Assembly: GCA_036785705.1 (NCBI GenBank)
Contig: JAWUZG010000084.1
Coordinates: forward strand, 12,723,501-12,787,500
Length of the DNA stretch: 64,000 bases
DNA from: Acanthornis magna
Lineage: Eukaryota > Chordata > Aves > Passeriformes > Acanthizidae
Direction of reading: 5' to 3'
Shown one piece after another: positions 1-34,618 of this stretch. The stretch's first letter is position 1, and each line of letters starts with the position of its first letter. The notes beneath the pieces were generated by a model. It made no database searches, was not told the DNA's origin, and was given only the letters and a program-made list of their open reading frames with translations. Position numbers and translations under genes: made by a program.

Positions 1-106
1 GTGGTGGTGGGGGTGGTGGTGGGGGTGGTGGAAGTCTCAGGTGTTGAGGGAGTGGTTGGCGATTCTGGTGTAGAGGATGCTGTGCTTGGTTTGCTTGTAG
101 TTGTGC
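1..106 (-). CDS. MUC2: MUC2 exon 39: PTS exon, cut by the window edge
   Basis: This exon begins at 106 after a TAACAG acceptor and reads [17 protein letters not shown] PTS codons to the window edge without a stop. It follows exon 38 directly with no CysD between, so the local period is about 1.2 kb. Its true end and all later exons are outside the window. Confidence 0.8.
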
Positions 107-3100
107 CTGTTAGAAACAGCAGGGACAGAGGAAACAGACAAAGGCACAAAGACATGAGTGGGACTCAACAGCAACTGAACAGAGGCTGCACATGAGGCAG
201 CTGCCACACACCTACACAGGTCAGCCCATCCTGAGCACAGCAAAGCTCCCTAGCACCAGCCCTTCCTTTCTGGCCCCAGAAAGAAGACTCCTTGAAATCC
301 ATGCACACACACACACAGGGTCACGGCCCTCCCTTACTAGAGAAGAGACTGGGGATGGTGCTGGAAGGTGCTTCTCACAAAATCAGGAAGACCTACCAAT
401 AGGGAAGAGATGAGAAAGAGCAATCCTTTCGATCTGGCTGGGGCTTTCTGTCTCTTTGTCATTATCTAGAACACCTCACTATATTGTGGGGCAAGAGCTG
501 AGAGGGGAAGCTATGATCAGGGAAGGAAGCATGCACAGGAATATGCTCCTTCCTGATTGGCACGTGGCTTCCCGATGTCAGGAGTTCCTAGAGTGGTTGT
601 GAATCTCCTCAGCCAAAGAACACACTTCACAGAAAGTCTCTGTCTGCAGAATGAAACTGGTTCCAAAAGCATGGCAGAGGAATATTTCCTTCCTACATCT
701 AAAACAGCTGACAAGCATTAGCACTGATAGAGCAAAGGATCAGGAGAAAGAGAAAAAAGTCTATGCATCTGTGCCTAAAGAGCACTTGAAATGAAAGTGT
801 CACAAAATCAAGCCCCACAACAATACACTCCATATGTCCAGTGACTCCATTCTGGCCAACTGAAGGACAAGGTCCAACAGTAGCAAAATCAACTAAATCT
901 TGTTCCTTCTGAAAGAGAGCTGAAGGGACAGCAATGGGCAAAGACTGTTTCAGGGGGATGTCCAGAAGTTAAACCCATTTTCAATCCCATACAGAGGCAA
1001 AAAAGGATGTGTTCACAGACTCTCACTACTCCCAAAGGCAAAGAACATACACCAGTACAAAACATAGAAGTACCTGGAGTTGGTACGGTGGTGGTGTATG
1101 TTGGTGTGGGCGAGGATGTGCTTGAAGTACTTGAGGTGGGTGTTGGTGATCCAGTAACAGTTGTGGTTGTGGTCGGAGGGCTGGTGGTGGTGGTGGTGGT
1201 GGTGGGGGTGGTGGTGGTCCTGGTGGTGGTGCTGGTGGGAGTCTCGGGTGGTGAGGGAGTGGTTGGCGATTCTGGTGTAGGGGATGCTGTGCTTGGTGTG
1301 CTCGTAGTTGTGCCTGTTAGAAACAGCAGGGACAGAGAAAACAGACAAAGGCACAAAGACATGAGTGGGACTCAACAGCAACTGAACAGAGGCTGCACAT
1401 GAGGCAGCTGCCACACACCTACACAGGTCAGCCCATCCTGAGCACAGCAAAGCTCCCTAGCGCCCGCCCTTCCTTCCCTTCTGGCCCCAGAAAGCACAAT
1501 CCTTGCAATCCATTCACAGAGATGGTCATGGCCCTCCCTTCCTAGCAAAGAGACTGGGGATGGTGCTGGAAGATGCTTCTCACAAAATCAGAATGATCTA
1601 CCAATAGGGAAGAAATGTGGCGGAGTAATGCTTTCAACCTGGCTGGGGCTTTCTATCTCTGCCTCATTACCTGAACACCTCACTAACTCATGGAGCAAGA
1701 GCTGAGATGGGAATCTGTGGTCAGGGAAGGATGTATGCACAGTACCAAGAGGATCAATATCTCAACAGGAGAGGGGGACATAGACCACTGTATCCTTGGT
1801 GCTTCTGAAACAACCAGACGAAGGGAGAGCTTTGGGCAAAGGCCATCACAGGGGACACATGGCAATTAATCCAATCTCAGACGCCATACAGAGGCACAAA
1901 TGGAGGTGTTCACAGACCTTCAATTCCCCACAGCAAGGAAACACATGAGAGCACAGATCAGAGAAGTACCTGGAGTTGATACGGTAGTGGTGTATGTTGG
2001 TGTGGGCTTGGATGTGCTTGAAGTAGTTGAAATGGGTGTTGTTGAGACAGGAACAGTCGTTGTTGTCTTTGGCGTGCTGCTGCTGGTGGTGCTGCTGGGG
2101 GGCATCGTGGTGGTGGTGGTGGTGGTGGTAGTAGGGGAGGCAGTGCTGGGAGTCTCCTCTGGCCGTGTTGGAGTGGTTGTTGATGGTGTTGTAGGGGACA
2201 CACTGGTCGTTGTGGAAAAAGGTGTGGAAGTTGTGGTGCTCGTGGTGCTTGGAGGTGAAAGACACTCTGGACGGTTGGGGGTGCAGCAGACACTGATCTC
2301 GTAGTTGAGGCAGACTGGCATTGGTATTATACCTCCTATCTGCTGATCTTTATTGTTACAGATGAGCCCTACGTCCACATCACATTCCACTTTCTGCCCT
2401 AAATCTGCAATGGGAGTGGTAGGGAATTTCTCTGCTCGGCATGAAATATTCTCAACTTTCGCACAGACCCAGGAGGAGTCGCTCTTCACAATGTTGTCAA
2501 AGGTTTCGTAGTCACCACTGTTTCTGTCAGAAGCATTTGGGTAACTCACATCAATCCAGTCCGTCCAGATGCAGTCACAGTCTGGGAGGTGACAAGAAGT
2601 CAGAAAATTAGAAACAGGTAGGACACAGACAACAATTCAGGGCACCAGCTCACACAGGTGGTGCTCTGGGCAGCCCCCGCATTCAACAGTGCCCCTCAGG
2701 CATTGCTACTGCACTCAGACAACAATGGCCACAACAAAGCTCAGTGCGGTGGCCAGGCCTCCCCTTCTTGGCCCAACAAACCACTCCTGGCCCAAATCAG
2801 GACACTGGGGGGCACACACATGAGTTATGTGTGTGCCCCCCACAGCCAGGTCACGTTGCTTTGTATGGAAACTCACGTGCAAAAAAACATGCACATAAGA
2901 CCCCACAGGAGGCAGAGCAGGACTAAGCAGAGCCCTGCCACTCGCTCAGCTTCTTGGGCCATGCACAACACCTCACTATCTCAGGCAGAAACCAACCACT
3001 GGGAAGGTGCCCAACCATGGGGAAAGCAGGCACAGGACACACACTGCTGACAAACCCACAGTGCTTCCCCAAAGCACAGATAGCTGGAGATAAGCAACAA

Positions 3101-6100
3101 CGGGAATGCAAGTAGAATCCAGCTGCCCACAGCTTGTGTCTGTGGAAAGGGGCAATCTGTGTTCTGAAATCTTTCCAGAAACTCTGCCAGGGAAAGCCTT
3201 GGAAGCTTCCTGCAGCACAAACAGCTGGTAAGTAGCAGCAACGGCCACAGAGACAATGCAGGAGAGAAATGGAAGAACATCTGCACAGCTGAGCCCAAAC
3301 AGAGCTTCAAATGCCACTGCCACAAACTTTAGCCCCACAACAATTGCACACCATGGGTCCAGTGACTGCATGCTGGCCAGCTGAAGGACACGGTCCAACA
3401 GCAGCAAAAGCAATGTTTCCTATCACTTAAGCATCTGTCTAAGCTGGGCACAAGCATGAAACACCTCCTTGGAGACCTGCGGAGTCAGGGAAGACAAGAC
3501 CTTCTCCTCAGGACCCCTTAATCCTTGTTCCTTTTAAACAGCCACCCCAAAGACCACTTTGGGCACAGTAATTTCCTGTGTGCCCAGAAGTTATACCCAT
3601 CGCTGACACCATCCAGAGCCACATGTGGAGGTGCTCATGGACTTTCACTACTCCCACAGCAAGGCCAGCAATGTCAACAGAACCAGAGAATTATTGGTTG
3701 GTACTGTGGTCAGAGGCACAGGGGTTTTGGAGGGAATTATTTGGTTTTGGAACATACTTGGTGGTCCACCTGTGGTTGTTGTTGGTCTGGAGGTGGTGGG
3801 GGTGGTGGTGGTGGTAGTGGTGGTGGGGGTGGTGGTGGTGCTGGTGGTGGTGCTGGTGGGAGTCTCGGGTGGTGAGGGAGTGGTTGGCGATTCTGGTGTA
3901 GGGGATGCTGTGCTTGGTGTGCTCGTAGTTGTGCCTGTTAGAAACAGCAGGGACAGAGAAAACAGACAAAGGCACAAAGACATGAGTGGGACTCAACAGC
4001 AACTGAACAGAGGCTGCACATGAGGCAGCTGCCACACACCTACACAGGTCAGCCCATCCTGAGCACAGCAAAGCTCCCTAGCGCCCGCCCTTCCTTCCCT
4101 TCTGGCCCCAGAAAGCACAATCCTTGCAATCCATTCACAGAGATGGTCATGGCCCTCCCTTCCTAGCAAAGAGACTGGGGATGGTGCTGGAAGATGCTTC
4201 TCACAAAATCAGAATGATCTACCAATAGGGAAGAAATGTGGCGGAGTAATGCTTTCAACCTGGCTGGGGCTTTCTATCTCTGCCTCATTACCTGAACACC
4301 TCACTAACTCATGGAGCAAGAGCTGAGATGGGAATCTGTGGTCAGGGAAGGATGTATGCACAGTACCAAGAGGATCAATATCTCAACAGGAGAGGGGGAC
4401 ATAGACCACTGTATCCTTGGTGCTTCTGAAACAACCAGACCAAGGGAGAGCTTTGGGCAAAGGCCATCACAGGCGACACATGGCAATTAATCCAATCTCA
4501 GATGCCATACAGAGGCACAAATGGAGGTGTTCACAGACCTTCAATTCCCCACAGCAAGGAAACACATGAGAGCACAGATCAGAGAAGTACCTGGAGTTGA
4601 TACAGTAGTGGTGTATGTTGGTGTGGGCTTGGATGTGCTTGAAGTAGTTGAAATGGGTGTTGTTGAGACAGGAACAGTCGTTGTTGTCTTTGGCGTGCTG
4701 CTGCTGGTGGTGCTGCTGGGGGGCATCGTGGTGGTGGTGGTGGTGGTGGTAGTAGGGGAGGCAGTGCTGGGAGTCTCCTCTGGCCGTGTTGGAGTGGTTG
4801 TTGATGGTGTTGTAGGGGACACACTGGTCGTTGTGGAAAAAGGTGTGGAAGTTGTGGTGCTCGTGGTGCTTGGAGGTGAAAGACACTCTGGACGGTTGGG
4901 GGTGCAGCAGACACTGATCTCGTAGTTGAGGCAGACTGGCATTGGTATTATACCTCCTATCTGCTGATCTTTATTGTTACAGATGAGCCCTACGTCCACA
5001 TCACATTCCACTTTCTGCCCTAAATCTGCAATGGGAGTGGTAGGGAATTTCTCTGCTCGGCATGAAATATTCTCAACTTTCGCACAGACCCAGGAGGAGT
5101 CGCTCTTCACAATGTTGTCAAAGGTTTCGTAGTCACCACTGTTTCTGTCAGAAGCATTTGGGTAACTCACATCAATCCAGTCCGTCCAGATGCAGTCACA
5201 GTCTGGGAGGTGACAAGAAGTCAGAAAATTAGAAACAGGTAGGACACAGACAACAATTCAGGGCACCAGCTCACACAGGTGGTGCTCTGGGCAGCCCCCG
5301 CATTCAACAGTGCCCCTCAGGCATTGCTACTGCACTCAGACAACAATGGCCACAACAAAGCTCAGTGCGGTGGCCAGGCCTCCCCTTCTTGGCCCTACAA
5401 ACCACTCCTGGCCCAAATCAGGACACTGGGGGGCACACACATGAGTTATGTGTGTGCCCCCCACAGCCAGGTCACGTTGCTTTGTATGGAAACTCACGTG
5501 CAAAAAAACATGCACATAAGACCCCACAGGAGGCAGAGCAGGACTAAGCAGAGCCCTGCCACTCGCTCAGCTTCTTGGGCCATGCACAACACCTCACTAT
5601 CTCAGGCAGAAACCAACCACTGGGAAGGTGCCCAACCATGGGGAAAGCAGGCACAGGACACACACTGCTGACAAACCCACAGTGCTTCCCCAAAGCACAG
5701 ATAGCTGGAGATAAGCAACAACGGGAATGCAAGTAGAATCCAGCTGCCCACAGCTTGTGTCTGTGGAAAGGGGCAATCTGTGTTCTGAAAGCTTTCCAAA
5801 AATTCTGCCAGGGAAAGCCTTGGAAGCTTCCTGCAGCACAAACATCTGGTAAGTAGCAGCAATGGCCACAGAGACAATGCAGGAGAGAAATGGAAGAACA
5901 TCTGCACAGCTGAGCCCAAACAGAGCTTCAAATGCCACTGCCACAAACTTTAGCCCCACAACAATTGCACACCATGGGTCCAGTGACTGCATGCTGGCCA
6001 GCTGAAGGACACGGTCCAACAGCAGCAAAAGCAATGTTTCCTATCACTTAAGCATCTGTCTAAGCTGGGCACAAGCATGAAACACCTCCTTGGAGACCTG

Positions 6101-9100
6101 CGGAGTCAGGGAAGACAAGACCTTCTCCTCAGGACCCCTTAATCCTTGTTCCTTTTAAACAGCCACCCCAAAGACCACTTTGGGCACAGTAATTTCCTGT
6201 GTGCCCAGAAGTTATACCCATCGCTGACACCATCCAGAGCCACATGTGGAGGTGCTCATGGACTTTCACTACTCCCACAGCAAGGCCAGCAATGTCAACA
6301 GAACCAGAGAATTATTGGTTGGTACTGTGGTCAGAGGCACAGGGGTTTTGGAGGGAATTATTTGGTTTTGGAACATACTTGGTGGTCCACCTGTGGTTGT
6401 TGTTGGTCTGGAGGTGGTGGTGGTGGTGGGGGTGGTGGTGGTGGTAGTGGTGGTGGGGGTGGTGGTGGTGCTGGTGGTGGTGCTGGTGGGAGTCTCAGGT
6501 GGTGAGGGAGTGGTTGGCGATTCTGGTGTAGGGGATGCTGTGCTTGGTGTGCTCGTAGTTGTGCCTGTTAGAAACAGCAGGGACAGAGAAAACAGACAAA
6601 GGCACAAAGACATGAGTGGGACTCAACAGCAACTGAACAGAGGCTGCACATGAGGCAGCTGCCACACACCTACACAGGTCAGCCCATCCTGAGCACAGCA
6701 AAGCTCCCTAGCGCCCGCCCTTCCTTCCCTTCTGGCCCCAGAAAGCACAATCCTTGCAATCCATTCACAGAGATGGTCATGGCCCTCCCTTCCTAGCAAA
6801 GAGACTGGGGATGGTGCTGGAAGATGCTTCTCACAAAATCAGAATGATCTACCAATAGGGAAGAAATGCGGCGGAGTAATGCTTTCAACCTGGCTGGGGC
6901 TTTCTATCTCTGCCTCATTACCTGAACACCTCACTAACTCATGGAGCAAGAGCTGAGATGGGAATCTGTGGTCAGGGAAGGATGTATGCACAGTACCAAG
7001 AGGATCAATATCTCAACAGGAGAGGGGGACATAGACCACTGTATCCTTGGTGCTTCTGAAACAACCAGACGAAGGGAGAGCTTTGGGCAAAGGCCATCAC
7101 AGGGGACACATGGCAATTAATCCAATCTCAGACGCCATACAGAGGCACAAATGGAGGTGTTCACAGACCTTCAATTCCCCACAGCAAGGAAACACATGAG
7201 AGCACAGATCAGAGAAGTACCTGGAGTTGATACGGTAGTGGTGTATGTTGGTGTGGGCTTGGATGTGCTTGAAGTAGTTGAAATGGGTGTTGTTGAGACA
7301 GGAACAGTCGTTGTTGTCTTTGGCGTGCTGCTGCTGGTGGTGCTGCTGGGGGGCATCGTGGTGGTGGTGGTGGTGGTGGTAGTAGGGGAGGCAGTGCTGG
7401 GAGTCTCCTCTGGCCGTGTTGGAGTGGTTGTTGATGGTGTTGTAGGGGACACACTGGTCGTTGTGGAAAAAGGTGTGGAAGTTGTGGTGCTCGTGGTGCT
7501 TGGAGGTGAAAGACACTCTGGACGGTTGGGGGTGCAGCAGACACTGATCTCGTAGTTGAGGCAGACTGGCATTGGTATTATACCTCCTATCTGCTGATCT
7601 TTATTGTTACAGATGAGCCCTACGTCCACATCACATTCCACTTTCTGCCCTAAATCTGCAATGGGAGTGGTAGGGAATTTCTCTGCTCGGCATGAAATAT
7701 TCTCAACTTTCGCACAGACCCAGGAGGAGTCGCTCTTCACAATGTTGTCAAAGGTTTCGTAGTCACCACTGTTTCTGTCAGAAGCATTTGGGTAACTCAC
7801 ATCAATCCAGTCCGTCCAGATGCAGTCACAGTCTGGGAGGTGACAAGAAGTCAGAAAATTAGAAACAGGTAGGACACAGACAACAATTCAGGGCACCAGC
7901 TCACACAGGTGGTGCTCTGGGCAGCCCCCGCATTCAACAGTGCCCCTCAGGCATTGCTACTGCACTCAGACAACAATGGCCACAACAAAGCTCAGTGCGG
8001 TGGCCAGGCCTCCCCTTCTTGGCCCTACAAACCACTCCTGGCCCAAATCAGGACACTGGGGGGCACACACATGAGTTATGTGTGTGCCCCCCACAGCCAG
8101 GTCACGTTGCTTTGTATGGAAACTCACGTGCAAAAAAACATGCACATAAGACCCCACAGGAGGCAGAGCAGGACTAAGCAGAGCCCTGCCACTCGCTCAG
8201 CTTCTTGGGCCATGCACAACACCTCACTATCTCAGGCAGAAACCAACCACTGGGAAGGTGCCCAACCATGGGGAAAGCAGGCACAGGACACACACTGCTG
8301 ACAAACCCACAGTGCTTCCCCAAAGCACAGATAGCTGGAGATAAGCAACAACGGGAATGCAAGTAGAATCCAGCTGCCCACAGCTTGTGTCTGTGGAAAG
8401 GGGCAATCTGTGTTCTGAAAGCTTTCCAAAAATTCTGCCAGGGAAAGCCTTGGAAGCTTCCTGCAGCACAAACATCTGGTAAGTAGCAGCAATGGCCACA
8501 GAGACAATGCAGGAGAGAAATGGAAGAACATCTGCACAGCTGAGCCCAAACAGAGCTTCAAATGCCACTGCCACAAACTTTAGCCCCACAACAATTGCAC
8601 ACCATGGGTCCAGTGACCGCATGCTGGCCAGCTGAAGGACACGGTCCAACAGCAGCAAAAGCAATGTTTCCTATCACTTAAGCATCTGTCTAAGCTGGGC
8701 ACAAGCATGAAACACCTCCTTGGAGACCTGCGGAGTCAGGGAAGACAAGACCTTCTCCTCAGGACCCCTTAATCCTTGTTCCTTTTAAACAGCCACCCCA
8801 AAGACCACTTTGGGCACAGTAATTTCCTGCGTGCCCAGAAGTTATACCCATCGCTGACACCATCCAGAGCCACATGTGGAGGTGCTCATGGACTTTCACT
8901 ACTCCCACAGCAAGGCCAGCAATGTCAACAGAACCAGAGAATTATTGGTTGGTACTGTGGTCAGAGGCACAGGGGTTTTGGAGGGAATTATTTGGTTTTG
9001 GAACATACTTGGTGGTCCACCTGTGGTTGTTGTTGGTCTGGAGGTGGTGGTGGTGGTGGGGGTGGTGGTGGTGGTAGTGGTGGTGGGGGTGGTGGTGGTG

Positions 9101-12100
9101 CTGGTGGTGGTGCTGGTGGGAGTCTCGGGTGGTGAGGGAGTGGTTGGCGATTCTGGTGTAGGGGATGCTGTGCTTGGTGTGCTCGTAGTTGTGCCTGTTA
9201 GAAACAGCAGGGACAGAGAAAACAGACAAAGGCACAAAGACATGAGTGGGACTCAACAGCAACTGAACAGAGGCTGCACATGAGGCAGCTGCCACACACC
9301 TACACAGGTCAGCCCATCCTGAGCACAGCAAAGCTCCCTAGCGCCCGCCCTTCCTTCCCTTCTGGCCCCAGAAAGCACAATCCTTGCAATCCTTGCACAG
9401 AGACAGTCATGTCCCACCTTGCCTAGTGAATATACTGGGGATAGTGCTGGAATATGCCTTTCAATAAATCAGAGACCTAACAATAGGGAAGAGATGAGGA
9501 GGAGTAATGCTTTTGATTTGGCTTGAGCTTTCCATCTCTGCCTCATTTCCTTAACACCACGGAAATCCCTGGAGTATGAGTTGTGAAGCAAATCCATGAG
9601 ATGGAATTGTGAAGTTCCTGCCTGTCTGTCATGAAATTTGCCTCTGGTGGACTGTCAGTCCTCTGAAGGGCTTCCCAAAGCTCTAGTGAATGGCATCAGC
9701 AAAAGGCTACAGTTCACCGCAAGCAGCATTCTTCAGTGCAAAACTGTTTCCAAAAGTCTCCCAGGTAAAGCCTTGCTTCTAAGCTCTAGAACCACTGCCT
9801 TCCACTTGCACTGACATGCCAGAGGAGGAGGTGAAAGGGAAGAAAGTCTGCACAGGTGTGCCTGTAATGAGAGTGTCACAACTTAAAGCTCCAGTCCCAT
9901 CGGACTCCTTGCATGGGTCCAGTGACCACATTCTGGCCAGCTGAAGGATACAATCCAACAGCAGGAAAATTAAGATTTCCCGTCAGTTCACCATCTCTCT
10001 AAGCTGGGTACCAGCACGCAATTTCTCCCTGGAGCCTTGGTCAGTCAGGGGAACCAAGACCTCCATCCTAGGACCCCTAAATCCTTGTTCTTCTAAACCA
10101 GCCAGCCAAAAGGCCAGCTTTGGCCTTTTGCCTTTTTGCCTTTGAGCACAGGCCACTTCAGGGGATGCACAGTATTTACTCCAATCTGCAATCCCACACA
10201 CTACAGGAGGTGCTAAGGCACCTTCATTTCTCCCATAGCAAAGGAACACATCAGAGTACAGGACAGAGAATTACCTGGAGTTGGTAGGGTGGTGGTGTAT
10301 GTTGGTGTTGGTGAGGATGTGCTGGAAATAGTTGTGGTGGGTGTTGATGATCCAGTAACAGTCGTTGTCGGAGTGGTGGTGGTGGTGGTGGGAGTCTCTG
10401 GTGTTGAGGGAGTGGTTGTTGATTTTGGTGTGCTCGGTGTGCTCGTAGTTGTGCCTGTTAGAAACAGCAGGGACAGAGGAAACAGACAATGGCACAAAGG
10501 CATGAGTGGGACTCAACAGCAACTGAACAGAAGCTGCATATGAGGCAGCTGCCACACACCTACACAGGTCAGCCCATCCTGAGCACAGCAAAGCTCCCTA
10601 GCACCAGCCCTTCCTTTCTGGCCCCAGAAAAAAGGCTCCTTGAAATCCATGCACAGAGATGGTCATGGCCCCCCTTTCATAGTGAGGAGATTAGACATGA
10701 TGCTGGAAGGTGCTCATCACAAACCAGAAAGACCATGTCAGCCTTCTGAAGGAAGCTTGTACAGTCCCACCCAGAAAATGCCTCTAGCCACAGGAGTTTG
10801 CAGCACAGCCTACTCTCTTCTCACACAGCAGGTCTTCCTGGGAATATTGTCTCCAGTAGAAATTTAAAAATCCAAACCCTACTAAGTAAAGACTTCCTTC
10901 TAGCTCAACATTTTCTATGATTGTGACCTGCCTTTAGTAGCCAAAAGCCCTTTATTTCTCCAATGGCAAAGTAAGATCATAGAATATTTTTCTGTTAAAT
11001 ACCTGTAGATGTTGAAGTGGGGACTGATGGTGTATGCTCACTTGTAGTGGAATGGATGGATGTGGGCATGGTGGTAATTTCTGTTGAAATCCTGGTTGTA
11101 GTGCTGATGGGTATTGTTGTCTGGGTGGTGGTTGAAGCTCCACCATGTGGTGTAGTAGGTATAGTTGTAGGCCCACAAGGAATTTCTTGCCACTCACAAC
11201 AGTTTACTCTGATTTCATAATTATAGCAAAGTGGCCACATAGTTACATCTTGCTCCTCATTTTTACAGATTAGTCCATATTTAACATCACACTCTACTTT
11301 CTGACCAAGCTCTTCCAAGCTCATATCCGGTTTATCCTTAGCCCTGCATTCAATCTTTTCAGGAGCTTCACATATTTTGTTTCCATGTTCTCTTATTTCA
11401 TCGTATGTTTCATAGTCACCATCACCTTCTTCAGGTTTACTAACATCAAACCACTCAGTCCAATCACAGATTAGTCCAAAGCATGGAGCTGCAAGAAAAG
11501 ACAGAGATTTCAGAGTTTACAGAGAACATCCTGAGAAGATCAATTTTTTATCTTCTTCCACTAAGGACTAGAGGAGTGCATTGCAATTAGTCATCTTTCC
11601 AAAGAAAAGAGTTCTCAAATCGTTTCTATATTACCAGGTCTTTAAACTGGAAGTTTTGCATCAAAATAAAATCACCAAGCAGAAGCCTTTAAAGGTCCTT
11701 CTTCTCTCTATACTAATGACACTTTTGAAATTACAAAAGAATTACTAATTTTTCTTTAAAACATATTTTTCTGTAGTGATTGTCTTTAATTTTCTTTTAA
11801 ATATTCCTTTGACATTTTTAACAACTTTGTTTTGTATTCATAACTTACTTGTAGTTACTGGACGGCTTGTAGTGGTAACTGAAATAGAACAAAAAGAGAT
11901 TAGTCTATCATTTCAAAAGAAATATAACAGTATATTTTTTTTGCTGACACTTCTGAGAATATTTCTACTATCCCATTAGAATATTGAAAAGCTAACATGT
12001 TTTTTCAGAAATAGGAAGTTACCCCATACATTTATACTTAAAATTTCTTTCATAAGAAATAAATCAACTCAAAAGGTTAAAAGTCTTTCTAAGTCTGGTG

Positions 12101-15100
12101 TGATAAAATTGTCCATAAATATTGCTCTGTGTCAACTATAATCCCATATAATTGTACATTCTATATTTAAAATACCTTCCTTAGAGAAAACAATTCTTTT
12201 TATCACATCTGTGTTGATGATTTACCTGTGGTGGTGGTAAGAGTACTGGTAGGAAAGGAGGTTGAAATGGTTGTAGGTGAAGATGTTGGACAAGGATAGA
12301 CTACACCAGGAACCACAGAACCATTTTCAGCACAAATGTATGTTATACAGATGTCACCATCCTGTATTTCTGCCACAATACCACCCACTTCATAACTTGT
12401 TCCATTGATGACACAAGGACACCCTGTGAAAGAGAAAGAGTTTTACTGTGCAACTGTTCTATTACCATGCAAGAGGCAAAGACAAAATACTTATGGACAA
12501 GAGAGCATTTACATGAGTCATGCATATTTTTCAGAGCTGTACCTGGAGCTTAGATCCAATTATATTGTGCTAATTTATTTTTATTTAAAGCAACATTAGA
12601 ACATATATAATCAAGTCCTGCTTAAAATGCCTGGTGGTACAGACTTAGAAAGTAGGTTTAAAATGTTCTGAGAGAAATAATAATTGCAATTTACTATCTG
12701 ACACTTTTATATAATAACTAACTACGTGTTCAGGAAGTGCAAACTCTTGTAGTGAAATCCATTACTTTGGATATAGGACATGGGGAGAAAGAATGAAGGG
12801 ACATGAGAAAAAGGCTGAACCAGAAGTACTAACAGCAAGGTTCAATGAGAGTGCTGCTAAATTTTCTTTAGTCACAACTTTCACTAGCACTGGAAAGAAT
12901 TATTCTAAATCAATACTAAGTTTTGCAGAGTCAGACACGGCAGTTCTATGCTTTTTTTTTGTTGTTGCTGCTGTTTCTAGAAAAACCCAAATGTTATTTA
13001 CCTGGGACTGGTTTACATTGTATGGATCCTGAAGGGCCACAGACACTAAAAGAAAAATTTTTGAAAATTAAAATGTTGCTGATGTTTTATGATACCTGTT
13101 AGCAGAGTCAAGAGCACAGAAACATAGATATTTGTCACTTGAGCTTCATTGACACCACTGGATATTTTTCTGGGTATATTTTCTAGTGTTGCCTATCATT
13201 TTTTCTTTCAAACTAAGTCACCACTTTCAGTACAACATCTTAAAACTATCATGTAATGCTTTGTGTTGCAAGTTGCAATACTGCAATAACAACTCTTTTG
13301 CAGAGTGAACTCACAGGTAGAGCAGGGTATTCTCTGGTCACCATGTGGAGCCAGAGGTGTAAGTGCTGTCATTGCTAAGGCTCTAAGAATGAGCAGTTAG
13401 GACTCAGCTATCTCCTTCAGGGCTAATCCAGAGTATTTCACATTACAGTGATTTTGAAGTTCCAGTTTTAAGTGAGAATGCAAGGCAGAATAGTCCCTCT
13501 CTTCCCAAAGAGTCATGAGAATCAAAAGGTTGTTTTAGAAGTTCACCCAGGTCTCATGCCATTATATAATTTATGACGGTTGACAGGTATAATTAGTGAA
13601 TTTGCTAATACACTTATTATAACAAAATTACCAACCTGAAATCTGCATTATTATGGGTTTGGAAAATTATGAAATGCAAGAATATACCAGCTCTTCAGCT
13701 GAAGTTGCATCTCTATTTGAGGCCCAGGAAAGTAAATGTGGGACTCAGCATACACAAATTATTTCCCAAATTACTTCAAGTAATTTTTATATACCATATT
13801 GTACAGTTTTCTTCTGTGGGTATTTCTTGACCAGGGGGTACATGGATTCCACCTTCGATGTAACACCAACATTGATCTTCAGTCACACATTCCTTTGTCG
13901 CTTCATTATAAATAGGCCTGTCCTTAGGGCATCTGGGGTAGCAACCTATTGATGACAGGCAGAACAGAATACAGGAATGAAGAAAGCATATAAAAGTTAA
14001 CTCAGCAATCTACTACCTTCTGAAGGTAAATTATTCTCAGTGAATCGGGTGTAGTGAACGAAATCAAAAACTTCCCATTCAAATCAATCCTTGGACAATT
14101 AGTCTTTCCGAAAGAGTTAAACAGTTCACATTGATAATACTGGGGTGAGAAGGATTATGTAAGAGGTTTTTTATGAAAACTAGAGAATTTATTTTTCCTT
14201 GATTCAATACCTTGGAGAAATCCCTAATTTTATGAAGAAACATCCCAATTTTTGTATAGATCACTGTATCAAGAATACTTTTGTGAGGAATATGGAAGCA
14301 TATTCACTAACAAACAGGTTTTACACTACAGTTATTGGACCATTAGACCTTGTTTATGTGCCTTTAATACACCAGGTATCTCTACCTCAAACAGATAATT
14401 TATCTGTGTTTTTCCTTACCCTTGGGCAGTGATCCAAACTTCACTGCAAGGGATTTATTGACTGTCAATCCTCATTCCATTTTTCATGTAAATACACTTA
14501 AAAATATTATTCTATTATTATTATTGTATCTCCTTCCTCCAAATAAACTCTTACTAAGTCCAATTATTAATGACATGAAGTCCTCTTTATACTGTACTGG
14601 AGTTCTAATAGCCTTTTAACTGAAACACCATGTAATTAACTGGCACTTAAAAGTCACTTTACACTGCCAGACTTTACTTCAGATGTCCTAACAAAAATAG
14701 GTGTGCTCTATATTTCTATTGAAATCAAACAATAAAAATAATTCAGAAAGATAATTGGATATATAATCATCTACCTTCTGACACTTTTCAAGTCTTTCTA
14801 ATAATATAAGACAATTTATTTTAAAACACAGAGGTTTGTTGGGTTTTTAAAAAATATTTTGGTTAGGGATTTTTGTTGATTTTTAGTGGGGTTTTTTGTG
14901 TGTTTTGTTTTGTTTTTCTTGGGTTTTGGTTTGTTTGATTTTTTTTATTTTCATTTTTTTACCAGCAATTCAAAACAAAGTCAAACTCAAGGCATTTCTT
15001 GCCAATCCCTAAACTGGAGATAAGTGCTTCGAGTCCAGACCAAAAAGACTATGTGGCTAAAAATAAGGCTTTTATCTCCAGCTTTACCATGAGGTAAATT

Positions 15101-18100
15101 AGAAGATATTTGTAAAGTCTTTCACATTCTTGGATTATTGCAGTCCCTTTAATGTGAAATTCCTGTTCCATTATCAACCACAAGGACTGTCACCTACTAA
15201 TTTCACATCTACAAATGAAATAGAATCTCTGTTAAGAATCCAATATATAGCAGCATCAGTGTGTCTGCTATGAAAGACACTTGTTTTCCAGTGTAAATGT
15301 AGGTGAATGCTGCACATTAATCTAGTAAAGGCAAGATGATCTGATGCATAAAAAACAATAAGGTCAAAACACCCCAAATATCAGTCACTCGCTTCTTTGC
15401 CATATCAAAGATTTTTCTTCTTTTGAAACACTTTAGCATGGGATTCAAAAGAACCACGATGTAATTATATTGCTTGTTTCAGGATATTATCCAAGCAGAG
15501 ACCTAGTTTTATGGTTGACAGCAATGTAACTATCACCCATTGATGTTAATAAACTACATTATAGGAAACATTTATGTAAGACTGGAGGCAAATTCAACAG
15601 AGCAGATTTAGGAACATCTCATCAAGTTGACTGACTATTCCATAATTGTTAAAAGATACCTGAAGAAATTTATACAAAACACAATACAAAATGGCAAGGA
15701 ATTTATTACCTTCCAGTAATGGTACTGTAATGTTGGTGCTGACATTGTTGATCATCCTGCAGGTTGTGATGTTACTGCCACAAGGCTCATAGTGCCACTC
15801 ACACTCATCACGAGGGTTGTAGTAGTCACAGAATATCGCTGATGAGAAAAAAGAGATACTCATTAAAAACAAGGTTGCCAGAATGCAGTTCTGAGTAGGC
15901 CTTTAAAGGTACAAGGTACATAAATCTACAAGTTAAGCCAGTCAAATTTCTCTTGAGGTACAAGACCTGGACTTTCTTGCTACTCTGCTTAAACTTAGGA
16001 TACATCAAAATCTGGTGCCCAAGATTTTAGTTTTAAATATTCAAGCCACTGGGTAAAAATTCTCCAAACCATAAAGGAAAAAAAAATTTTAAATTATTTT
16101 AGTTTAAAATTAAGGGTATATTTCTGAGAGTATTTTTCTTCCATAGCTACTAGCAAACTCCTAAATATTTTTGCATTTTACACAAAATAGTTCCATCTTG
16201 CTGTATCACATAGGTTGACAGTCCATGAAGAAGCATATGAGACATTATTAATACAACTTAAATTCAGCTTAGATGACTACAGACAGAGGAAGGAGCTTTT
16301 ATTAACTTATATATCAGAGCTGAATGTAACTTATAATTTTTGTTTCACTGGCTTCTTACCCTTAAAAATTCCAATCTGAATGAATTTTAAAATTAAAAAA
16401 AATTATAAATTTCTGCTACTTATAATCTCAAAATTTTGATTTGAGCACTTTTTGGTAATATTAATTTAAGTACTGTTTTACATTAATTTATTGTGTACTG
16501 GTATAAGTACTAGCACCACTAATGGACACTGCTTAATATAGACAACACTGAGGCTCAGTGCTAAAGCACGGGAATGTTATATACTTTTTGCTAAAATCAG
16601 ATTTGGAATAATTTGAAGAACTGAAAGAGGAGAGAGATGACAGAGGAAGAGAAGAGAAAAGAGAGAGAGAAGAGAAGAGAAGAGAAGAGAGAGAAGAGAA
16701 GAGAAGAGAAGAGAAGAGAAGAGAAGAGAAGAGAAGAGAAGAGAAGAGAAGAGAAGAGAAGAGAAGAGAAGAGAAGAAGAAGAGAAGAGAAGAGAAGAGA
16801 AGAGAAGAGAAGAGAAGAGAAGAGAAGAGAAGAGAAGAGAAGAGAAGAGAAGAGGAGAAAAAAGCCATGCTGAATAAAAGACAACTGAAAAATATAAATT
16901 TACTAGTCCTCTTTGTTCCCTGATATGCTGAGAAAATAGATTTCATCAAGTAGCCAGCATGCCCTTGCAGTGACAGTACTAATGATTCATTTGACTGCCT
17001 ATCTGACAGCCACTAGAAAAATACAGTTGTGTTTATCTGTTACTCACGGCAGATATCAGGAGTTCTCCAGAAAACACAGGCCTCAGCCTTGGTACACTCT
17101 TGGGCATATGCAGCCACTGCAGAACAGAAGCACTCGCAATCTCCACCGCTGTCACATGAGCAAGCATCATGAACACAAGCTTCATAGAAAGGATGTGGAT
17201 CCACCTGTCAGGGAAAGAAATGATGCCCCAGTTCATCTCCAAATTAGTTTTCAAACTAATAGTTTTGAGAGCTCTTGATATATGGAAATTGAGCTGGGCA
17301 GGAATGAAACTGTGTCTAAGAGTTACTAAATCACAAACAAACATTTACAGGCTTGAAGCTGCTCAATATATTTTGGGAAATAATAGACTTAAAATAATAT
17401 AGCTCCTTCACAATTTGCTATAACTGAAAAAACAAAGTAAGAGTCCTTGGCAGTGCCCACATATTCTATGCTCCATTTTAGTGCTCTCAAAATCAAGTTG
17501 AATTGATGCCAGTAAAGTCTTATCTTTCAGTAAGCTTTGCCAATCGAATGGGTGAACAATATCAGAAAGGCTGCATTCACAGCAAATATGAAGCACATAA
17601 TTTTGTGCCTGTCAGTTTTTGTAGTTTATCCAATGACACATTAAAAAAAGGGTTTTTTTTTTGCTTGAGACTGCAAGAGGAGAAACTTAGACTGGATTTT
17701 TGCTGCTGAAGTAAACCACGTGGAAACATATAACTAATTAATTAAATTAATAATTGTTTGTGATTTTTCCACTGTGAGTTAAGAACAAACTGTTGTTAAT
17801 ATTACCATACTTCAGGACAGAGATGAGACATAAAGAGGCGTGCTCTCTGTGCACTGTACTCTGGTAGTTGCGGGCTGTCATAATGTTTGCTGTGGCAATT
17901 TGGAGGCACAGTACCAGCAGCTATCTGTCTAAACTATGTGATGTTGGTGAAGGAGATCCAAGACCCAAGAAGATCCTTCTATGGGTTGAATACTACAAGA
18001 AGTAGTAGCCTCTTCAACAGCCAGCTTTCAAGTTTTGTATGAATTTCCATCAGGAGATGGGTCTGATGATCGTAAGGTCCTTCAGAACTTGCAATACTGA

Positions 18101-21100
18101 CTGTCTCTCAACAAGAGATGGTGCAGCTGCAGTAAACACAAACCTATTCAGGCTAGATTTCTGAAGCTAACTTGCAAAGCAGTAACAGTGAAATCGTGGT
18201 GATGACGCAGTGCCATTGCCACAGAGACTCAGACTGCTTTGACTATGGCCACATGAAAAGTGCTGACATCTGCTGTACTGAAGACTTAATTGAAGATCAC
18301 TCTATTTAACCATCTCTTCATTCATTTCTGATGGTCTTTTTGGTTCTGCATTATCAGAAATGCACTGCATTGTCCCATCACCTACTGCCTTCTACAAACC
18401 TTGGAGTGACAGATTTCGAAGACTTCACTCTGGATGATGCTGCATTCTTTCTCTGCCCAGGACTTCCGGTGTGGTTTCAGATCACAAGGCTTAATCTCTT
18501 GTGTGACATCTGGGCACATGGGAGACTGTTTCCAGGAATTTCCAAACTTCAGGGAATTAGCATCCTGCAGTCCACTCCTTGTTGTAAAGTCATTGTTTGA
18601 CTTGTCATCAAAGTTACCACACAGACCACACACTTTGCCCTGGTAAAGAAAATTGAGTTTTTAAATATACCATGAAAGTGAGAAACAGGCTCTGGTAAAG
18701 TAAGAGCAAAACATTGACATGAAAAATGACAAATTACTGTCTGTGTAAATCATGATTTTCATCTTTACTGTCAAATAATTTATACAAAAAATAAATCTTT
18801 GTCTGTCCTCAGCAAACTCTTCAGCTGCCATGTCTTCCTTCCTTGAAATCAACTGTATCTAGTGTATTTCCATCTCTCTGTCTCCATATCCAACTTAAAA
18901 CATTAAAGGATGGCCAAGCCTCTTACAGCTGAGAAGAATTAATTTATTCTCCATTCTTCTCAATTTATCGTAACTCATCTATTAATATAAACCTGAGGTA
19001 ATTAATTTCTGCTCAAAGCTCTTTTTAATAAAAGTTTTTAACATAATGAGCACTACTTCATTCATGGAAAAGAAATGGCAGGAAATTCTTGAAAGAAAAA
19101 CGTATCAATCTACCCTCAATAATGAATTTTTTGTAGTGCTATTTAAGGTACACCAGCCCCCTCAAGAAACAGTATGTCCCTGTTTGTAGAATGCCTCAAT
19201 GCTCTCCAATTCAGCATGCTGATTTTCAGGAAGCAGAACTATGGCCATACATTGCATAGGGAGCTTGGTTTTAACACAGGGCTGAGATTACATGTAGGTT
19301 TCCAAGCGCATGTGAGATCAGTCCACATCCCCTAAATTACTTTGGATGATTGGCTATCAATACTCTCAAACTCAGGAATGCCTGAGATGTTTATCTCTAT
19401 TGCAATAACATCCTGTGCTTTCTCTGCAATGCATTGTGATAGACTAAGGAACCCCAGAAGCACTTCTGCAAGCTGTGATGGTAATAATGGAAGCTAATCA
19501 TCAGTCCAGTGAGGATATAGTAATTAGACACAAAATCAGAATAAAAGAACATTTGTTTTTCCTGTTAATAATACTACTTCAGAAAAAGACAGGCAGGCAC
19601 TCACTTTGTAATCAGGGCTCAGCTTGATGAAAACAGTAGTTTTCTTGTCCCAGATCAGCATCACACCGTTGCTAGCCTCGATAACCAGGTACAGGCCGAC
19701 TGTCCTGTTCCAATACTGCACATCACCACCAACATCTCGTTGAATTTCTCTGTATTCTTTGTTCTCCAATTTCAGTTCCGTTTTCTGAAAGATAAAAAGA
19801 GAAATATTGTAACACTAACTTCTATGATGAGATAAAATATTAGACACTCTTAACAATACAACTCATACTGAAACCAATAGCTCAGACTCTGGGATGACTT
19901 CCAAGATGGCAGGGAGTGGTGTAGCACTTCTGTTTGAGAGAGTTTTCATCACCTGAGAATCTACACTTTTACAGAATAATTTGATAGGGCCTCTAATGCT
20001 TGTTACAGCTGCTTTTAGGGGCGTGACTTTGGAGCATTACTTTTTTGATAACACTTGATTACTGACATGTACTGACTGAGTATCATCACTCACCCCTAGA
20101 AACATTTTGATAGCCTTTGAGCAAGTGACTCCTGTAGTTCCACAAGGGACATTCTCTGTGATGATACTGAATGAGCCACTGGATTTTTTGTCACCACAGA
20201 AGTCCTATTGAAAAAGAAAAAAAAAGAACATGAGAAAATTAGGTAGAAAATTTCATTTTAGTTCAATCTCATAATAATTGCAATCGTTTAAATCTTCACA
20301 ATGTATAAATAGTTACCGCTTCTTCAAATGTGAGATCCTACATACACATATTTTTACAGATGCACAGTCATATATGCATATTTCTATGCTTACATATAAG
20401 CCTGGGAAAAGGAGTAGGACAATAAAACAAAATGAGAAATATATCTTTAAATATAAGTTTCAAGTTGCTAAGCTTAGAATTTGGTTTTTTCACAAATGAT
20501 AGTTAGCTCTCACTATAACATAGTTCTGTTATATATAATTTATTGTATTTATATCTTTTAAAAAAGCCACATTCACACAGCTTGCCTCCACTGAAAATAC
20601 ACAATTTATCCTGGCAAAATGTGTGAACACCTCAAAAATAGTGATGACAGGCAATAAGGAATGATAAAACTAAAAAGAAAAGTAGATCTTCAAGGCAATC
20701 AAATTCCATTTCAGCCCTCCTGCTGAGCATTACCTGAGCAGCCACATATTCACAGCTCCCATCAAAGTCATAGAATTTCCCATCAAAAGTGTTGTAATGG
20801 CCACTTCCATATATCATACAAGTTCCATAGCACACTTCATTAGTGCATTTCCAAACCCCCTTTTGGCAGGTACTGGAAAAGAGCAGAAAAGTTGAATTTT
20901 CAGATCTCACCAAGACTGCGCAGTTTCAAAAACTGCAGAACAAACCAAGCAGCTGTCTGATATAATGTGATAATGTGCAAGATATCCAAGCCTCAACTTC
21001 AATTGTTTAGCCTGTTTTTAACCCTATAACATGATTTTTACTCTGTTCAGCTATAATCTTTAGATCTGATAGCATTTATATTTTAAAAATGAGTGAGTTT

Positions 21101-24100
21101 TCCAACAAGAGATGACTGCTGAAAACCGAGGTAACTACTAACCCCATATTTTTAGCAGAATCTGTATTTTCTCAGATAGCAGTAAGAATTCCTGAAAATT
21201 AAGGATGATACCTCCAGCTTTTGCAGCCACTGTAGTACATAAGTCTAGACATGACTATTAATATACTGCATAGCATATATTCTAGAAGAGTATAAAATTA
21301 TAATTCACCAGGTGTTGCAGTCCACTTTTATCTTCTCTCCAGAAGAATACCACTCATTGTTATGAATGCATGGGCAGTCCTTTTCCTTAACACAGCCCCC
21401 TCTGCCATCATCAAACAGACCTTCGGGACACACACAGCCTGAGACACACTCTGTCTGGAACTAAGGAATATAAGGAAAAAGGTTACCTTATGACAAAGCA
21501 CTGCATTTTAATTCCACTTCTTCACAAGCACTCTTTAAAAACTGCACTTACAACCCAACAGCCTAATATTGATTAGTATTATAAGGTTCTTTTTTTCTGG
21601 GTTTCTAATGTTTTTTCTTTTCTTTTTGATTGTCTAAGAACCCAAATTCTTTTTCACTTGGAAATCATGACTCTACTGAAAACACAATAAAAAGATAGAG
21701 GAGAGGGAAACCATAAAGGGAATCATAATGAAAATGTCAACAGATTAATATCATTGGGGGGAAAAAAAGTGAAGATTAAACCAAATAGAAATAAATTGTT
21801 AGTTACAACTGTATTTGCTGTGTAGCACCAGGTCATTTAAAGAATACAGAATAAAGAAAGCATGACACAAAGAGAAATTGAATACATACATGATCAGTTT
21901 GAGGAGTATGACAGCTAAGTTGTATAGGTGTTTGGGAAGTCCACTTTGAGGACGCATTGCAGTCAAAGTATGTCTTGTTAGAAGAACATTCTCTTTCACC
22001 TGAAAGGTACATTGTGGGCTTAGATCAATCAAGAAAAGGCAAAAGAAATGTGAGTGAAAGGTGGTAGCTTCTGAGACAGAAGTCTCAGTCTATCCTTACG
22101 AAAAAAATAGGCTCAGTGAAGAGAGAATGAAGTGAAAATGTGTTACTATTTTACATAAAGAGAAAAAAACACTCAAAACAACTAAGTGGAAAATTCAAAA
22201 GGGAAGTAGGTTTGGGTTGGGAGGTTGGTTATGGGTTTTATTCTAGTTTAGTTTATAGAATGTCACTTACTTTTCACTCTTATTTTCACTGAAGTGCACT
22301 GGACCTTTGCATTCCGGCAAACACTAGAAAAGTGAAATAAGTAGAAATTTAAAAGGAAAAAAAGCACCAAGCTCAATATCTTCAATTTAAGTCTGACGAT
22401 TTGTTTATATAAATTTGAGAGTATTTATCAAAGATGTCCTGCATAATTTCTACTGAAATTTCAAGGTCAATTCTATTAAATCACACACATGACATTTTAG
22501 TTGGAGAAAAAGTGAAGCAAGATTTTAGGCATAATGCACAGAAAGGTTATGTTTTAAGGAATGACAGCTATACTATTAATCATTAATACTATGTTTTATG
22601 ATAACACAGGAAATAGATAACAATGAAACAGATAATAAAGATACTTTAAATCAAAGCCTCCATTTGGAAACACAGTGTATTTTCATGCCTATCCAATTCA
22701 TACGCTGCATATTTGTTGACATATATGCCGCTTCTGCTGCATGAAAGAAGGTATTTCACAATTTGCACTGACAACTCAGGTAACAAACAGTTGCCAGAGT
22801 TCATGGCAAAATATAACAGAATCATGAAAGTTGTTTACAAAAGCCTATAAGTAAATACTTATCAAGGGGACTTTCCTCAAGTGGAAAACACAAGAAATCT
22901 GTGTCTGTTAGAAAAGGAAACATAATGTATAGTTGGCCTTTTATCTTTCTTTCACCCTTCTGTTTAACAAGTCCTTATTAACAGTGCAGCTTCAGAATAA
23001 CATTTATCTGTGAAGGCCAGTACTCACACCTCAAAGCAAGCTGCTCTTCTCAATTATTGATAAATTGCATTGCAACAGGATAATGCTTGGCTCAACACGA
23101 AGACGTTGTGAAATGCATTACAAATGCTCATTAAAGTACCAAAAAAGCTAAGCACCTTACACCTAATAAGTAATTTTTGTAAGATTTTTTCCCCCATAAA
23201 CAAGAAGCCAAAATAAAACATACCAGCGTTCTCCATCTTTTGTGAAATATTCCCCAGGTTCCAGGTAAGATCCCTTGTAATAACATGGGCACTGGGAGAT
23301 GGGCACACAGTTATCCTGGTTGTCCAAGTATGTGTTTTGTGGGCAGCCACAGCCATCCACAGGAGCAAAGTCCTGCAAGCAGTACTTTTCACCATCAGCA
23401 ACAGAACGACAGGTTTGCTGGCACATGGTCAAATTGTAAAGGAAGACTTGATTTCCTGGGCAAGAAGACGCTTCGCTACCTGGAGGGAAAATAAACAAAC
23501 TGATAAATAAGAGATGCAGGATAGTCAATTCGGTCCTGACATTTCCATTTTGGTTTCTTTGGCTGTGCCGAATGTAATGATGAAAACATTCCCTTAGATC
23601 TTACTAAAGTACAAAATATCAGAAGTCACAAGCAACACTAACCTAACTTTAACAGTTGAAGACTTTTTTTAACTGCTACTAACAGTTTCTACTTTCATAC
23701 CCCTATTTGTTTCACATACTGATAATCAAATAGAAAGCACACTACAATAGTGTGTAGTGTGCTTAGGGGACTAGGACTAGTGTCCCTAGACTCAACCACA
23801 CTAAATTGCTGATGAAAAGCAAGTACAATGAGAAACAAAGACACTGATAAACAAATGCATGGTAAAAGCCCTGATGGCTGGGATTCCATTAGTAAATGAA
23901 ATTATATTAGCTAAACTGGGGAAAGAAGGTGAAAGTTAAAAATACTGTTTTCTACTTTTAAATATGTCATGATCAAATTACATCTGAAGAATACAACATG
24001 AATTATGAGTCATGAATGAATTATAAGTCAACATTAATTATGTTGACATGAATTATAAGTCAACATTATAAGTAAACATTATAAGCAGTGTCTCTTTTAG

Positions 24101-27100
24101 GTCCATTAGACATTTCTAAGATACTCCAGATCTCTTAGCACTGAGATCACCAACAACCAAATTCAGGGAGAGCCTGCTCATTTCTCATGGTTAATTAATT
24201 CCACAGGGATTACTTTTCCACTACTTACTGCAGACACTCTCTCTCCAGCCTCCCAGTATGATCCCTTTGAAAGCACAGGCTCTTGAGTAAGAGGACAGGG
24301 CAGCGCACAAGCATTCTTCATTGTCTTCACAGAGGCAGGTGTCATATTTACATTTCTGAAAAAAAGATCAGAGGGTTAATAAGTCCACAGGAAACCAAAG
24401 GGCAATTGTAAGTTGGCTGCTACAAAATGTCCTGTCTGCTTTTTCTGATGTTGTTTATATTAATTTCCCATGACTAGAGAAAATGGAAGGAACAGACAAA
24501 GACCAGAGACTTGAAGTGCTGCTTCATTTCATACACAATGAAAATATTTGGATGCTTATTCTAACCTAAGACAAGCCACCTGAACCTTTAAAAAGCAACC
24601 AGCCTCCTAAGAACACCGTTTTCAAAGGGTATTGATACCATTCATTCTCAGTGACTAATTAGAAATGCAGAGATCCACAAAAACTAGAAATCATAAAGGC
24701 AAGATATCAACTAGATCTCTGAATATCTTTATCTCTATTTGAACTCACACTGACTTCCAAGTATAAGCAATTATTTTGGAATTCCTTTTCCTCAGGTAAG
24801 CCTCACTTACTGCCCAACAGAGATGAGCATGGGGGGAAAAAATTCATGAAGATTCTGGCATGGAAATGATTTGGTGTTACATTCCAACCAACATATGGAA
24901 ATTTTTTTCCCCGACTTTATAGAAACTAATGTTTAAGGGTAGACTTAAACTGTCTGTGCATCTCTTGAATCTTCTCTTGATATATCAACATCTCTTGAAT
25001 CTTCTTTTCAGTCCAAATATCCCCGCCAATAAAAATGTACATTAAACACAAAACATAAGAAAGCAAAAAACCAAATGTACATTTTTCTTCAGCAGCAGCC
25101 CAAAAGGATCACATCATGGGAGATATTTTGGATGCTATGCTGCTTGAGTCAGCAGCAGAAACTTCAGTAGCTCTTATGGACAAACTACTCAGAGATATCT
25201 CAAATGCTCAAACAATGATAAATGTCTACAGTTAACCATCTGAAATAATGCAGTACTAAAAGAGTGCAAAGTTACAATACCTTATAGTATTCTGAAGGAT
25301 CAATGACCAAGTGACATCTTGCAAAAGGACCCTTGGGGTTTTTCAGCAAAGAACACCAATGCTCAGCATAATTTGCTGGAAAAAAAAAAAAGATAAATTA
25401 ATCCCATTTCCTTATCTTTCTTGTGCCATGTCTAGTTATGTCGACACATAAATGCAGTGCAACAATACAAATGAGAGAACTGTGTGCATTTGGGAGAGTG
25501 GAGAAACTACATGCAATCACTGTATATGTATTTCTACTCCTTGATTCAGAGACGTGCAATCATAAAATCAAAAATTGCATCTTCTTGTTGCAACTCGTTT
25601 ACATGGAATTATGACAGCTCTTTCCATTTGAGGACCATAAAGCTAAGTTAAACATAAGGCTAAATAATACTATTACATATACTAAATACAAGCTGTCTTT
25701 GCAGATAATGCAAATTAATGACTGTTTTTCCCAATCTTCCAGCTTATGACTCTTTTACAATCATGCCCTAAACTTTCACTTCAATTTGATGGGAAATCAG
25801 TGCTTGTATGTATACCTACTTGCAGATATTAATTATTAATTTGACAGTCCTGTAAAAAATCTTCAGTGCCACAGTACAAGTCTTACATGCCTGTTGCAGT
25901 GTAAGCAGATACTACTCAGCCAGGCAGAAGCCAACCATCTGGCTCATTAACATGCTTACCACTTTCAATGCTGAGACTGCAGGGGTCTTCAAGGTTTTCT
26001 GCTCGATCTATGCAGGTGGACTGAGCTTTCCACGTGTTGGCAAAAGCAGATCCTGTAGCCTCTATCAGCCCACTGGTTGTTCTAAAGTCATCACCTTCCA
26101 TTCCATTGAAGTTTCCACAAAGACCTATTCAAAAACAAGGTAGAAAATTTGACTTAATCATTACTTATTCTCATATTAAAAGGTCAAAAGAAAGGGACAA
26201 ATGATCACAAACACTAGAAACAGCTGATTATTCCACCTCAATATTAATGCATACTATAAATACTGAAGATTTAGAAGCCCTGTTTTAAATATTCAGCATC
26301 TTCAAGAATAGTCATCATGAAGATATCCATGCTTCAGGAAACATCTAACCTGTATTTTTTATGCTTTCTGATGATATTGAAACCATAAAATGCACCAAAA
26401 ACCTGGTTTTGTGGATAGTTAAAAATTAAACTGAATACAAAAGTAAGGAATATCCTAAGAAACATATATGTATTGGCACCAGAGTGATAGGTCATTTCAA
26501 TATCAAAAAATAAAAACACATTTCTAGTTTGCTTGAGTTGATTTTCATTCAATTTTCTCTTCCTGAATCAACAAGAAGCATGAGTTATCACTCATATAAA
26601 GAATATAGGACTATTCAGCTGTGGAACAGCATGGCTTTGCTTCCCATTTGCATAGACACTTGCCTTGAAGTTTTCCTTTAACTGATTGATCCACAGTCAC
26701 AAACAGCTGCATGACTCGAAACAGCTGGATCTGCATCTGAAGCCCAAAAGAAGTTTGTACAACAAAGTAGTTGGAAGATGGCTTGAACACTGAGAAGCTG
26801 GCTGGAAAACAAAACATGAACTGTTGCAGTAGACACACACACACAGGCTGCCAAAAGAAACACTTCTTATTAGATTCTAATGTACCACCTGTCATGAAAA
26901 CTCTGAGACCAGGATCAAATGAATATATTTTTCCTTTAAAAATTACTGACCCACTAGATAGGATGCTGATCCTCACTAACTTATTATATTGATTACTTGT
27001 AATGGCTCATCTCTGGGATCAGAACCAAATGGACATGCCCACACCATGTAGGCAGATTTGGAAAGTGCTCTTTACAGGCAAGTTAAATTATCTGCTTTAA

Positions 27101-34574: not shown

Positions 34575-34618
<44 letters not shown>

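What the first reader, a model, noticed from the sequence alone, without database searches (positions are those of the whole stretch)
1180..9395. Recent head-to-tail array of 2.62-kb MUC2 modules, each with a CysD and a PTS exon
Three full units and part of a fourth are near-identical through exons and introns. Mammalian MUC2 has only two CysD domains; this locus has at least four (one diverged plus three array copies), so the number of gel cross-link modules has been raised by segmental duplication. Such an array is likely to vary in copy number between individuals and species.
Basis: partly seen in the sequence, partly recalled or inferred. Interest (0 to 1): 0.75.

Follow-up and report, generated by a model that had tools for sequence, protein, structure and literature searches.

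The report
Songbird MUC2 gut-mucin CysD module array
In this bird's gut-mucin gene a 2.6-kb block carrying a cross-linking domain is repeated three times almost letter for letter; many other birds' proteins carry such copies too, usually alike within a species but different between species, so the block seems to be kept uniform and its number changed over evolution.

Summary
Three full units of 2621-2630 bp (1235-3855, 3856-6485, 6486-9115) plus part of a fourth are 99.6-99.7% identical through exons and introns. They lie on the minus strand of a passerine MUC2 gene whose D1-D3 exons precede them in order. Each unit holds a 612-nt CysD-PTS exon and a 177/186-nt PTS exon; the exons are phase 1-1 and join into a stop-free 1096-aa frame. 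The reading needs two changes. Mammalian MUC2 is the wrong yardstick: chicken MUC2 was already reported with four CysD domains (PMC3549977). And the array is probably not simply new: of 33 birds with two or more such copies (32 of 70 named species, plus this window), 26 have copies at least 98% identical within the bird, while the best match between birds has median 74.5%. Annotated copy number runs from 0 to 9, but 38 of 70 species show 0 or 1, many from truncated models. Best explanation: an old CysD-PTS module array under concerted evolution. Tighter mucus mesh is inferred; variation between individuals is untested.

The parts
11003..11488 (-). CysD1 + PTS exon (486 nt), the diverged first CysD; counterpart of chicken MUC2 exon 30
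   Evidence: PF13330 E 7.7e-30; acceptor cttgcag|CTCCATGC and donor CTACAG|gtattta resemble the chicken exon 30 sites in PMC3549977 Table 2
10275..10454 (-). PTS exon (180 nt) upstream of the array, diverged copy
   Evidence: AG/GT sites, length divisible by three; 86% to array copies
9009..9194 (-). PTS exon of the partial fourth unit (186 nt), first in transcription order
   Evidence: phase-1 donor CAA|GTATGT scoring 7.8; the 45 chicken MUC2 donors that trained the matrix score 5.1 to 11.5, median 9.5
6486..9115 (-). full array unit of 2630 bp (boundaries are arbitrary register points)
7221..7832 (-). CysD-PTS exon (612 nt), array copy 1
6379..6564 (-). PTS exon (186 nt), array
3856..6485 (-). 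full array unit of 2630 bp
4591..5202 (-). CysD-PTS exon (612 nt), array copy 2
3758..3934 (-). PTS exon (177 nt; 9 nt shorter in the ACC run, in frame), array
1235..3855 (-). full array unit of 2621 bp
1970..2581 (-). CysD-PTS exon (612 nt), array copy 3
1074..1313 (-). hybrid PTS exon (240 nt): array-like 5' part, other-type 3' part; the array edge lies in its ACC run
1..106 (-). further PTS exon, cut by the window edge, beyond the array
   Evidence: acceptor at 107/106; 88% to array copies
12290..36705 (-). D1-D2-D'-D3 exons of the same MUC2 gene, in order, from signal peptide to the last match before CysD1
   Evidence: tblastn of crow, fairy-wren and cowbird mucin-2 (the 36.7-kb end from the cowbird); VWD, C8, TIL Pfam hits; D3 exon closest to human MUC2 among solved structures

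Best explanation
This is the central part of a passerine MUC2 gene in which a two-exon module (a CysD-PTS exon plus a PTS exon, with both introns) is repeated head to tail. Shown: three near-identical full units; exons of phase 1-1 with lengths divisible by three, so adding or losing a unit keeps the frame; blocked differences among units. Inferred: out-of-register crossing-over and gene conversion between units keep changing the number and homogenising the copies, so that copies are alike within each bird and differ between birds (concerted evolution). Inferred from work on other mucins: each extra CysD adds an association and cross-link point on the MUC2 polymer, so copy number would tune mesh size and stiffness of gut mucus.
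For: Units 99.62-99.70% identical, introns included. The 14 substitution sites fall in 4 runs by which unit differs (permutation p about 0.0003), as tract exchange predicts. Nine exons with AG/GT ends, all divisible by three, joined ORF of 1096 aa without stops; the two exonic substitutions leave the protein unchanged. Across 70 bird species (one protein each, from 100 mucin-2 rows), 32 have two or more array-type CysD copies; with the window, 26 of 33 have every copy at least 98% identical, against a between-bird best match of median 74.5% (57.3-100, 528 pairs); the first CysD has median 82.2% over the same pairs. In New Caledonian crow mucin-2 three successive array CysD copies are spaced 259 and 259 aa apart, with a CysD-PTS plus PTS make-up like the window's (exon borders there inferred from protein). 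A recombinant 12-CYS protein stiffens mucus and lowers mesh size (PMC6861317, abstract and passages).
Against: One haplotype and one region were read; no long reads, RNA or read depth. Copy numbers elsewhere come from automated gene models, and 38 of 70 species show 0 or 1 array-type copy, probably in part assembly collapse or truncated models (Corvus cornix 0, C. moneduloides 4). Recent independent duplication in each lineage would also give within-species identity. Galloanserae break the pattern: chicken, two quails, prairie chicken and swan carry copies only 49-54% identical to one another; rhea (93%) and pelican (96%) are less uniform. The run test has only 14 sites. Nothing here tests the effect on mucus.
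Confidence: 0.8

Rival explanations
1. The array is an assembly artefact: a shorter locus with allelic or repeated reads laid end to end.
For: Unit divergence (0.3-0.4%) is within what two alleles of a songbird could show (recalled). Such loci are hard to assemble: the same exon lies on contigs under 3 kb in 70 of 119 bird hits read off.
Against: The three copies differ by blocked sites and a 9-bp in-frame change. Crow and eagle mucin-2 on chromosome-scale sequences show repeated identical CysD modules. A public chicken Mucin 2 entry (P0139, L7XFH1) has two copies at 99%.
Confidence: 0.09
2. A lineage-specific, very recent amplification in this bird's ancestors, unrelated to arrays in other birds (no long-term homogenisation).
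For: Very low divergence between units; CysD spacing differs between groups (196 aa in accipitrids, 259 in crow, 266 here); 38 of 70 bird species show 0 or 1 copy as annotated.
Against: Would need separate recent amplifications in most of the 32 named species with two or more copies; blocked sites point to exchange between copies.
Confidence: 0.2
3. The gene is a MUC5AC/MUC5B-type mucin, in which many CysD domains are normal.
For: Bird records name this exon MUC2, MUC5A or MUC5B without consistency.
Against: D3 exon scores human MUC2 181 bits, MUC5B 154, MUC5AC 142; array CysD best matches MUC2 8s03; the best full-length hits are bird mucin-2; CysD1 exon splice sites resemble chicken MUC2 exon 30.
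Confidence: 0.03

Closest known systems
Chicken MUC2 (PMC3549977; PMC1552070)
   Same: Same gene, same D1-D3 plan and a CysD1 exon with similar splice sites, more than two CysD domains, repeated exons in the centre that broke the assembly
   Different: Chicken is reported with four CysD domains; in the entries counted here two array-type copies are 99-100% alike and a third is only 54%; I saw no 2.62-kb triple unit in the passages and sections read
New Caledonian crow mucin-2 (P0244)
   Same: CysD-PTS plus PTS make-up, array CysD copies 100% identical
   Different: Four array copies, spaced 259, 259 and 507 aa; CysD 87% identical to the window's; protein only, introns not seen
Crested eagle, golden eagle and buzzard mucin-2 (P0256, P0251, P0248)
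   Same: CysD copies 100% identical within the protein
   Different: 196-aa spacing, apparently without the extra PTS exon; nine, five and five array-type copies annotated
Human MUC5AC CysD/VNTR copy-number variants (PMC11344006)
   Same: CysD and PTS copy number vary in a gel-forming mucin
   Different: Variation described within one large central exon (passages), not by two-exon units with introns

Membership tests
MUC2 gel-forming mucin | D1-D2-D'-D3 N-terminal assemblies, closest to MUC2 | tested here: met
MUC2 gel-forming mucin | PTS regions interrupted by CysD after D3 | tested here: met
MUC2 gel-forming mucin | C-terminal D4, VWC and cystine knot | not testable with these tools
   would lie left of the window; own-genome search unanswered
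MUC2 gel-forming mucin | Synteny beside MUC6, opposite direction | tested here: inconclusive
   by eye, no mucin-like frame among the cysteine-rich plus-strand frames at 36-64 kb, a crude look only
CysD (PF13330, WxxW) domain | Pfam model match, WxxW motif, ten cysteines | tested here: met
   PF13330 at E 2.5e-24; WTDW output; ten Cys
Concertedly evolving tandem array | Copies within a species more alike than copies between species | tested here: met
   26 of 33 birds (window included) with all copies at least 98%; nearest copy strictly same-bird for 69 of 95 copies, 19 ties at 100% between close relatives, 7 failures, all Galloanserae
Concertedly evolving tandem array | Copy-number variation among haplotypes | not testable with these tools
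   one haplotype only

The most novel reading that the evidence does not exclude
Across birds, the number of MUC2 CysD cross-link modules is a fast-changing trait run by concerted evolution of a frame-neutral exon cassette, from one to about nine, giving a natural dosage series in which CysD number sets gut-mucus mesh size and may follow diet or microbes.
Probability: 0.3. Interest if true: 0.65.

Novelty: new member of a known kind. Interest (0 to 1): 0.42.

Why it matters
What CysD domains do in mucus is still being worked out; the tests I saw add an engineered CysD protein or compare different mucins. Birds may offer one gut mucin with a natural range of near-identical CysD copies. The locus also warns that assemblies and gene models can undercount these domains, so comparative statements on mucin architecture need long reads.

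Tried and rejected
Donor site: I first took GTGGAC (score 0.5) as the donor of the array PTS exons and suspected them weak, because the site that is a donor in the other copies reads AT in the array. A scan found a strong phase-1 donor CAA|GTATGT 12 nt further downstream (7.8), so the exons look sound. The notebook entry carries the wrong donor and one search corrects it; the entry says 73 proteins where one search has 72.

Selection: searches used 53 bird rows (49 species) and left out many shorter or repeated bird mucin-2 entries. On checking, I recounted all the bird mucin-2 rows I could name in the two listings (100 rows, 70 species). The 21 added species all have 0 or 1 array-type copy, so the count of such species rose from 17 of 49 to 38 of 70. 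The within/between figures did not change. 'Array-type' means closer to the window's array CysD than to its CysD1, at least 102 aa; four shorter matches (Numida, Colinus, two in Grus) were dropped.

Short contigs as proof of collapsed arrays: 70 of 119 hits read off lie on contigs under 3 kb, but I ran no matched single-copy control, so this is only suggestive. RNA families and tRNAs: none. No structure prediction was run: CysD structures are already solved. MUC5-type identity and artefact were considered and set aside as above.

Full report
The array is real. Self-comparison shows 5.8 kb of the window matching itself one unit away at 98.8%. Cut at a common point, the three full units differ at 10, 10 and 8 positions, and one is 9 bp shorter in a TGG run. 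Two of the 14 substitution sites are exonic; the three CysD-PTS exons encode the same protein, and the array PTS exons differ only by three threonines in length. The sites are blocked: four runs by which unit is the odd one out, and shuffles reach four or fewer in about 0.03% of cases. That is what exchange of tracts between copies leaves behind; with three copies and 14 sites it is a modest test.

What it belongs to. Reading leftwards on the minus strand, exons matching bird mucin-2 run in order from a signal peptide at 36.7 kb (cowbird match) through D1, D2, D' and D3 to 12.3 kb, then the diverged CysD1 exon, a PTS exon, and the array. The D3 exon scores 181 bits to human MUC2, 154 to MUC5B and 142 to MUC5AC. 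The CysD1 exon has splice sites much like chicken MUC2 exon 30 (Table 2 of PMC3549977). The organism is a bird, most likely a passerine: the closest named CysD is from Origma solitaria, 94.4%, then Pardalotus, Struthidea and others near 90%. That points weakly to the Australasian Meliphagoidea (placement recalled).

Exons. Each unit carries a 612-nt exon (CysD of about 106 aa, then about 98 aa of PTS) and a 186-nt PTS exon (177 in one). All nine exons from CysD1 to 1074 have AG/GT ends, lengths divisible by three and phase-1 borders; joined, they read 1096 aa without a stop. Gain or loss of any of these exons or of a unit is therefore frame-neutral. The left array edge lies inside the coding ACC run of a PTS exon, a plausible place for unequal exchange. 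Diverged copies at 80-88% on both sides point to earlier rounds of duplication. None of this shows that the exons are spliced as modelled; no RNA was available.

Other birds. From the 173 distinct proteins listed I first counted CysD domains in 72, then in every bird mucin-2 row that I could name, 100 rows from 70 species, one protein per species. MUC5-type entries were left out. Array-type copies number 9 in one species, 5 in three, 4 in three, 3 in six, 2 in nineteen, 1 in fourteen and 0 in twenty-four. Many of the lowest are truncated models of about 1300-2900 aa. Including the window, 33 have two or more; in 26 every copy is at least 98% identical. Between birds the best match has median 74.5% (range 57.3-100, 528 pairs), and the first CysD has median 82.2% (69.3-100). 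For 69 of 95 copies the nearest copy is strictly from the same bird; 19 are ties at 100% between close relatives; the 7 failures are in chicken, two quails, prairie chicken and swan, which carry a distinct second class of CysD. In those birds the copy counts above include that class. Rhea (93%) and pelican (96%) are less uniform. These are automated models, limited by the search tool to about 3990 aa and 6890 aa, so larger proteins may be missed.

Reading. Within birds, more than two CysD domains was reported in 2006 (at least three in chicken, PMC1552070, passages) and 2013 (four, PMC3549977, passages and sections). The 2013 paper also notes that DNA flanking these exons is repeated and that a 21-kb gap sits there, and suggests that chicken mucus may have smaller pores. 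Predicted MUC2 of horse, bilby, pig and cheetah has 7, 4, 3 and 3; the other five mammals counted have one or two. That CysD domains evolve in concert is in the title of a 2009 paper (Desseyn; seen only in a reference list). So the kind is known. The near-identical two-exon unit with introns, and the pattern of identity within and divergence between bird species, I did not see in the listings. These cover open-licence papers only, and some show a part (20 of 49, 10 of 209, 8 of 72).

Function. CYS domains have been studied as non-covalent dimers and in transglutaminase-dependent association (PMC6861317, passage); the first one of human MUC2 takes part in filament assembly, and isopeptide cross-links are proposed (PMC11912381, passages). 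A secreted protein of 12 CYS domains reduces mucus permeability and mesh size (PMC6861317, abstract and passages). From this I infer that extra CysD domains per MUC2 chain raise association points. No measurement here bears on it.

Age. Taking a bird substitution rate near 2e-9 per site per year (recalled), 0.3-0.4% between units corresponds to about one million years or less since last exchange. This dates homogenisation, not the origin of the array.

Noticed in passing
window 8944-9009, 6314-6379, 3693-3758: In the three array PTS exons the position aligned by eye with the donor of the other PTS exons reads AT instead of GT, and a strong donor (CAA|GTATGT) lies about 65 nt upstream of it, so the exon end seems to have shifted before the copies spread.
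   Followed up: partly
window 16625-16858: (AAGAG)n microsatellite of 47 units in the MUC2 intron after the third C8 exon.
   Followed up: no
window 37000-64000: About 27 kb upstream of MUC2 shows no evident coding exons in a crude look for cysteine-rich or long frames; MUC6, expected as neighbour in the opposite direction, was not seen.
   Followed up: partly
P0139, P0147, P0152, P0259, P0260, P0267: Chicken, two quails, swan and prairie chicken MUC2 carry a second CysD class (102 aa), about 49-54% identical to their other array-type copy or copies.
   Followed up: partly
P0207, P0283: Predicted horse MUC2 has seven CysD domains and bilby MUC2 four, more than the two usually quoted for human and mouse.
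   Followed up: no
and listings: Public names are unreliable: the same bird exon is called MUC2, MUC5A or MUC5B, and a turtle gel-forming mucin (P0241) is named antigen KI-67.
   Followed up: no
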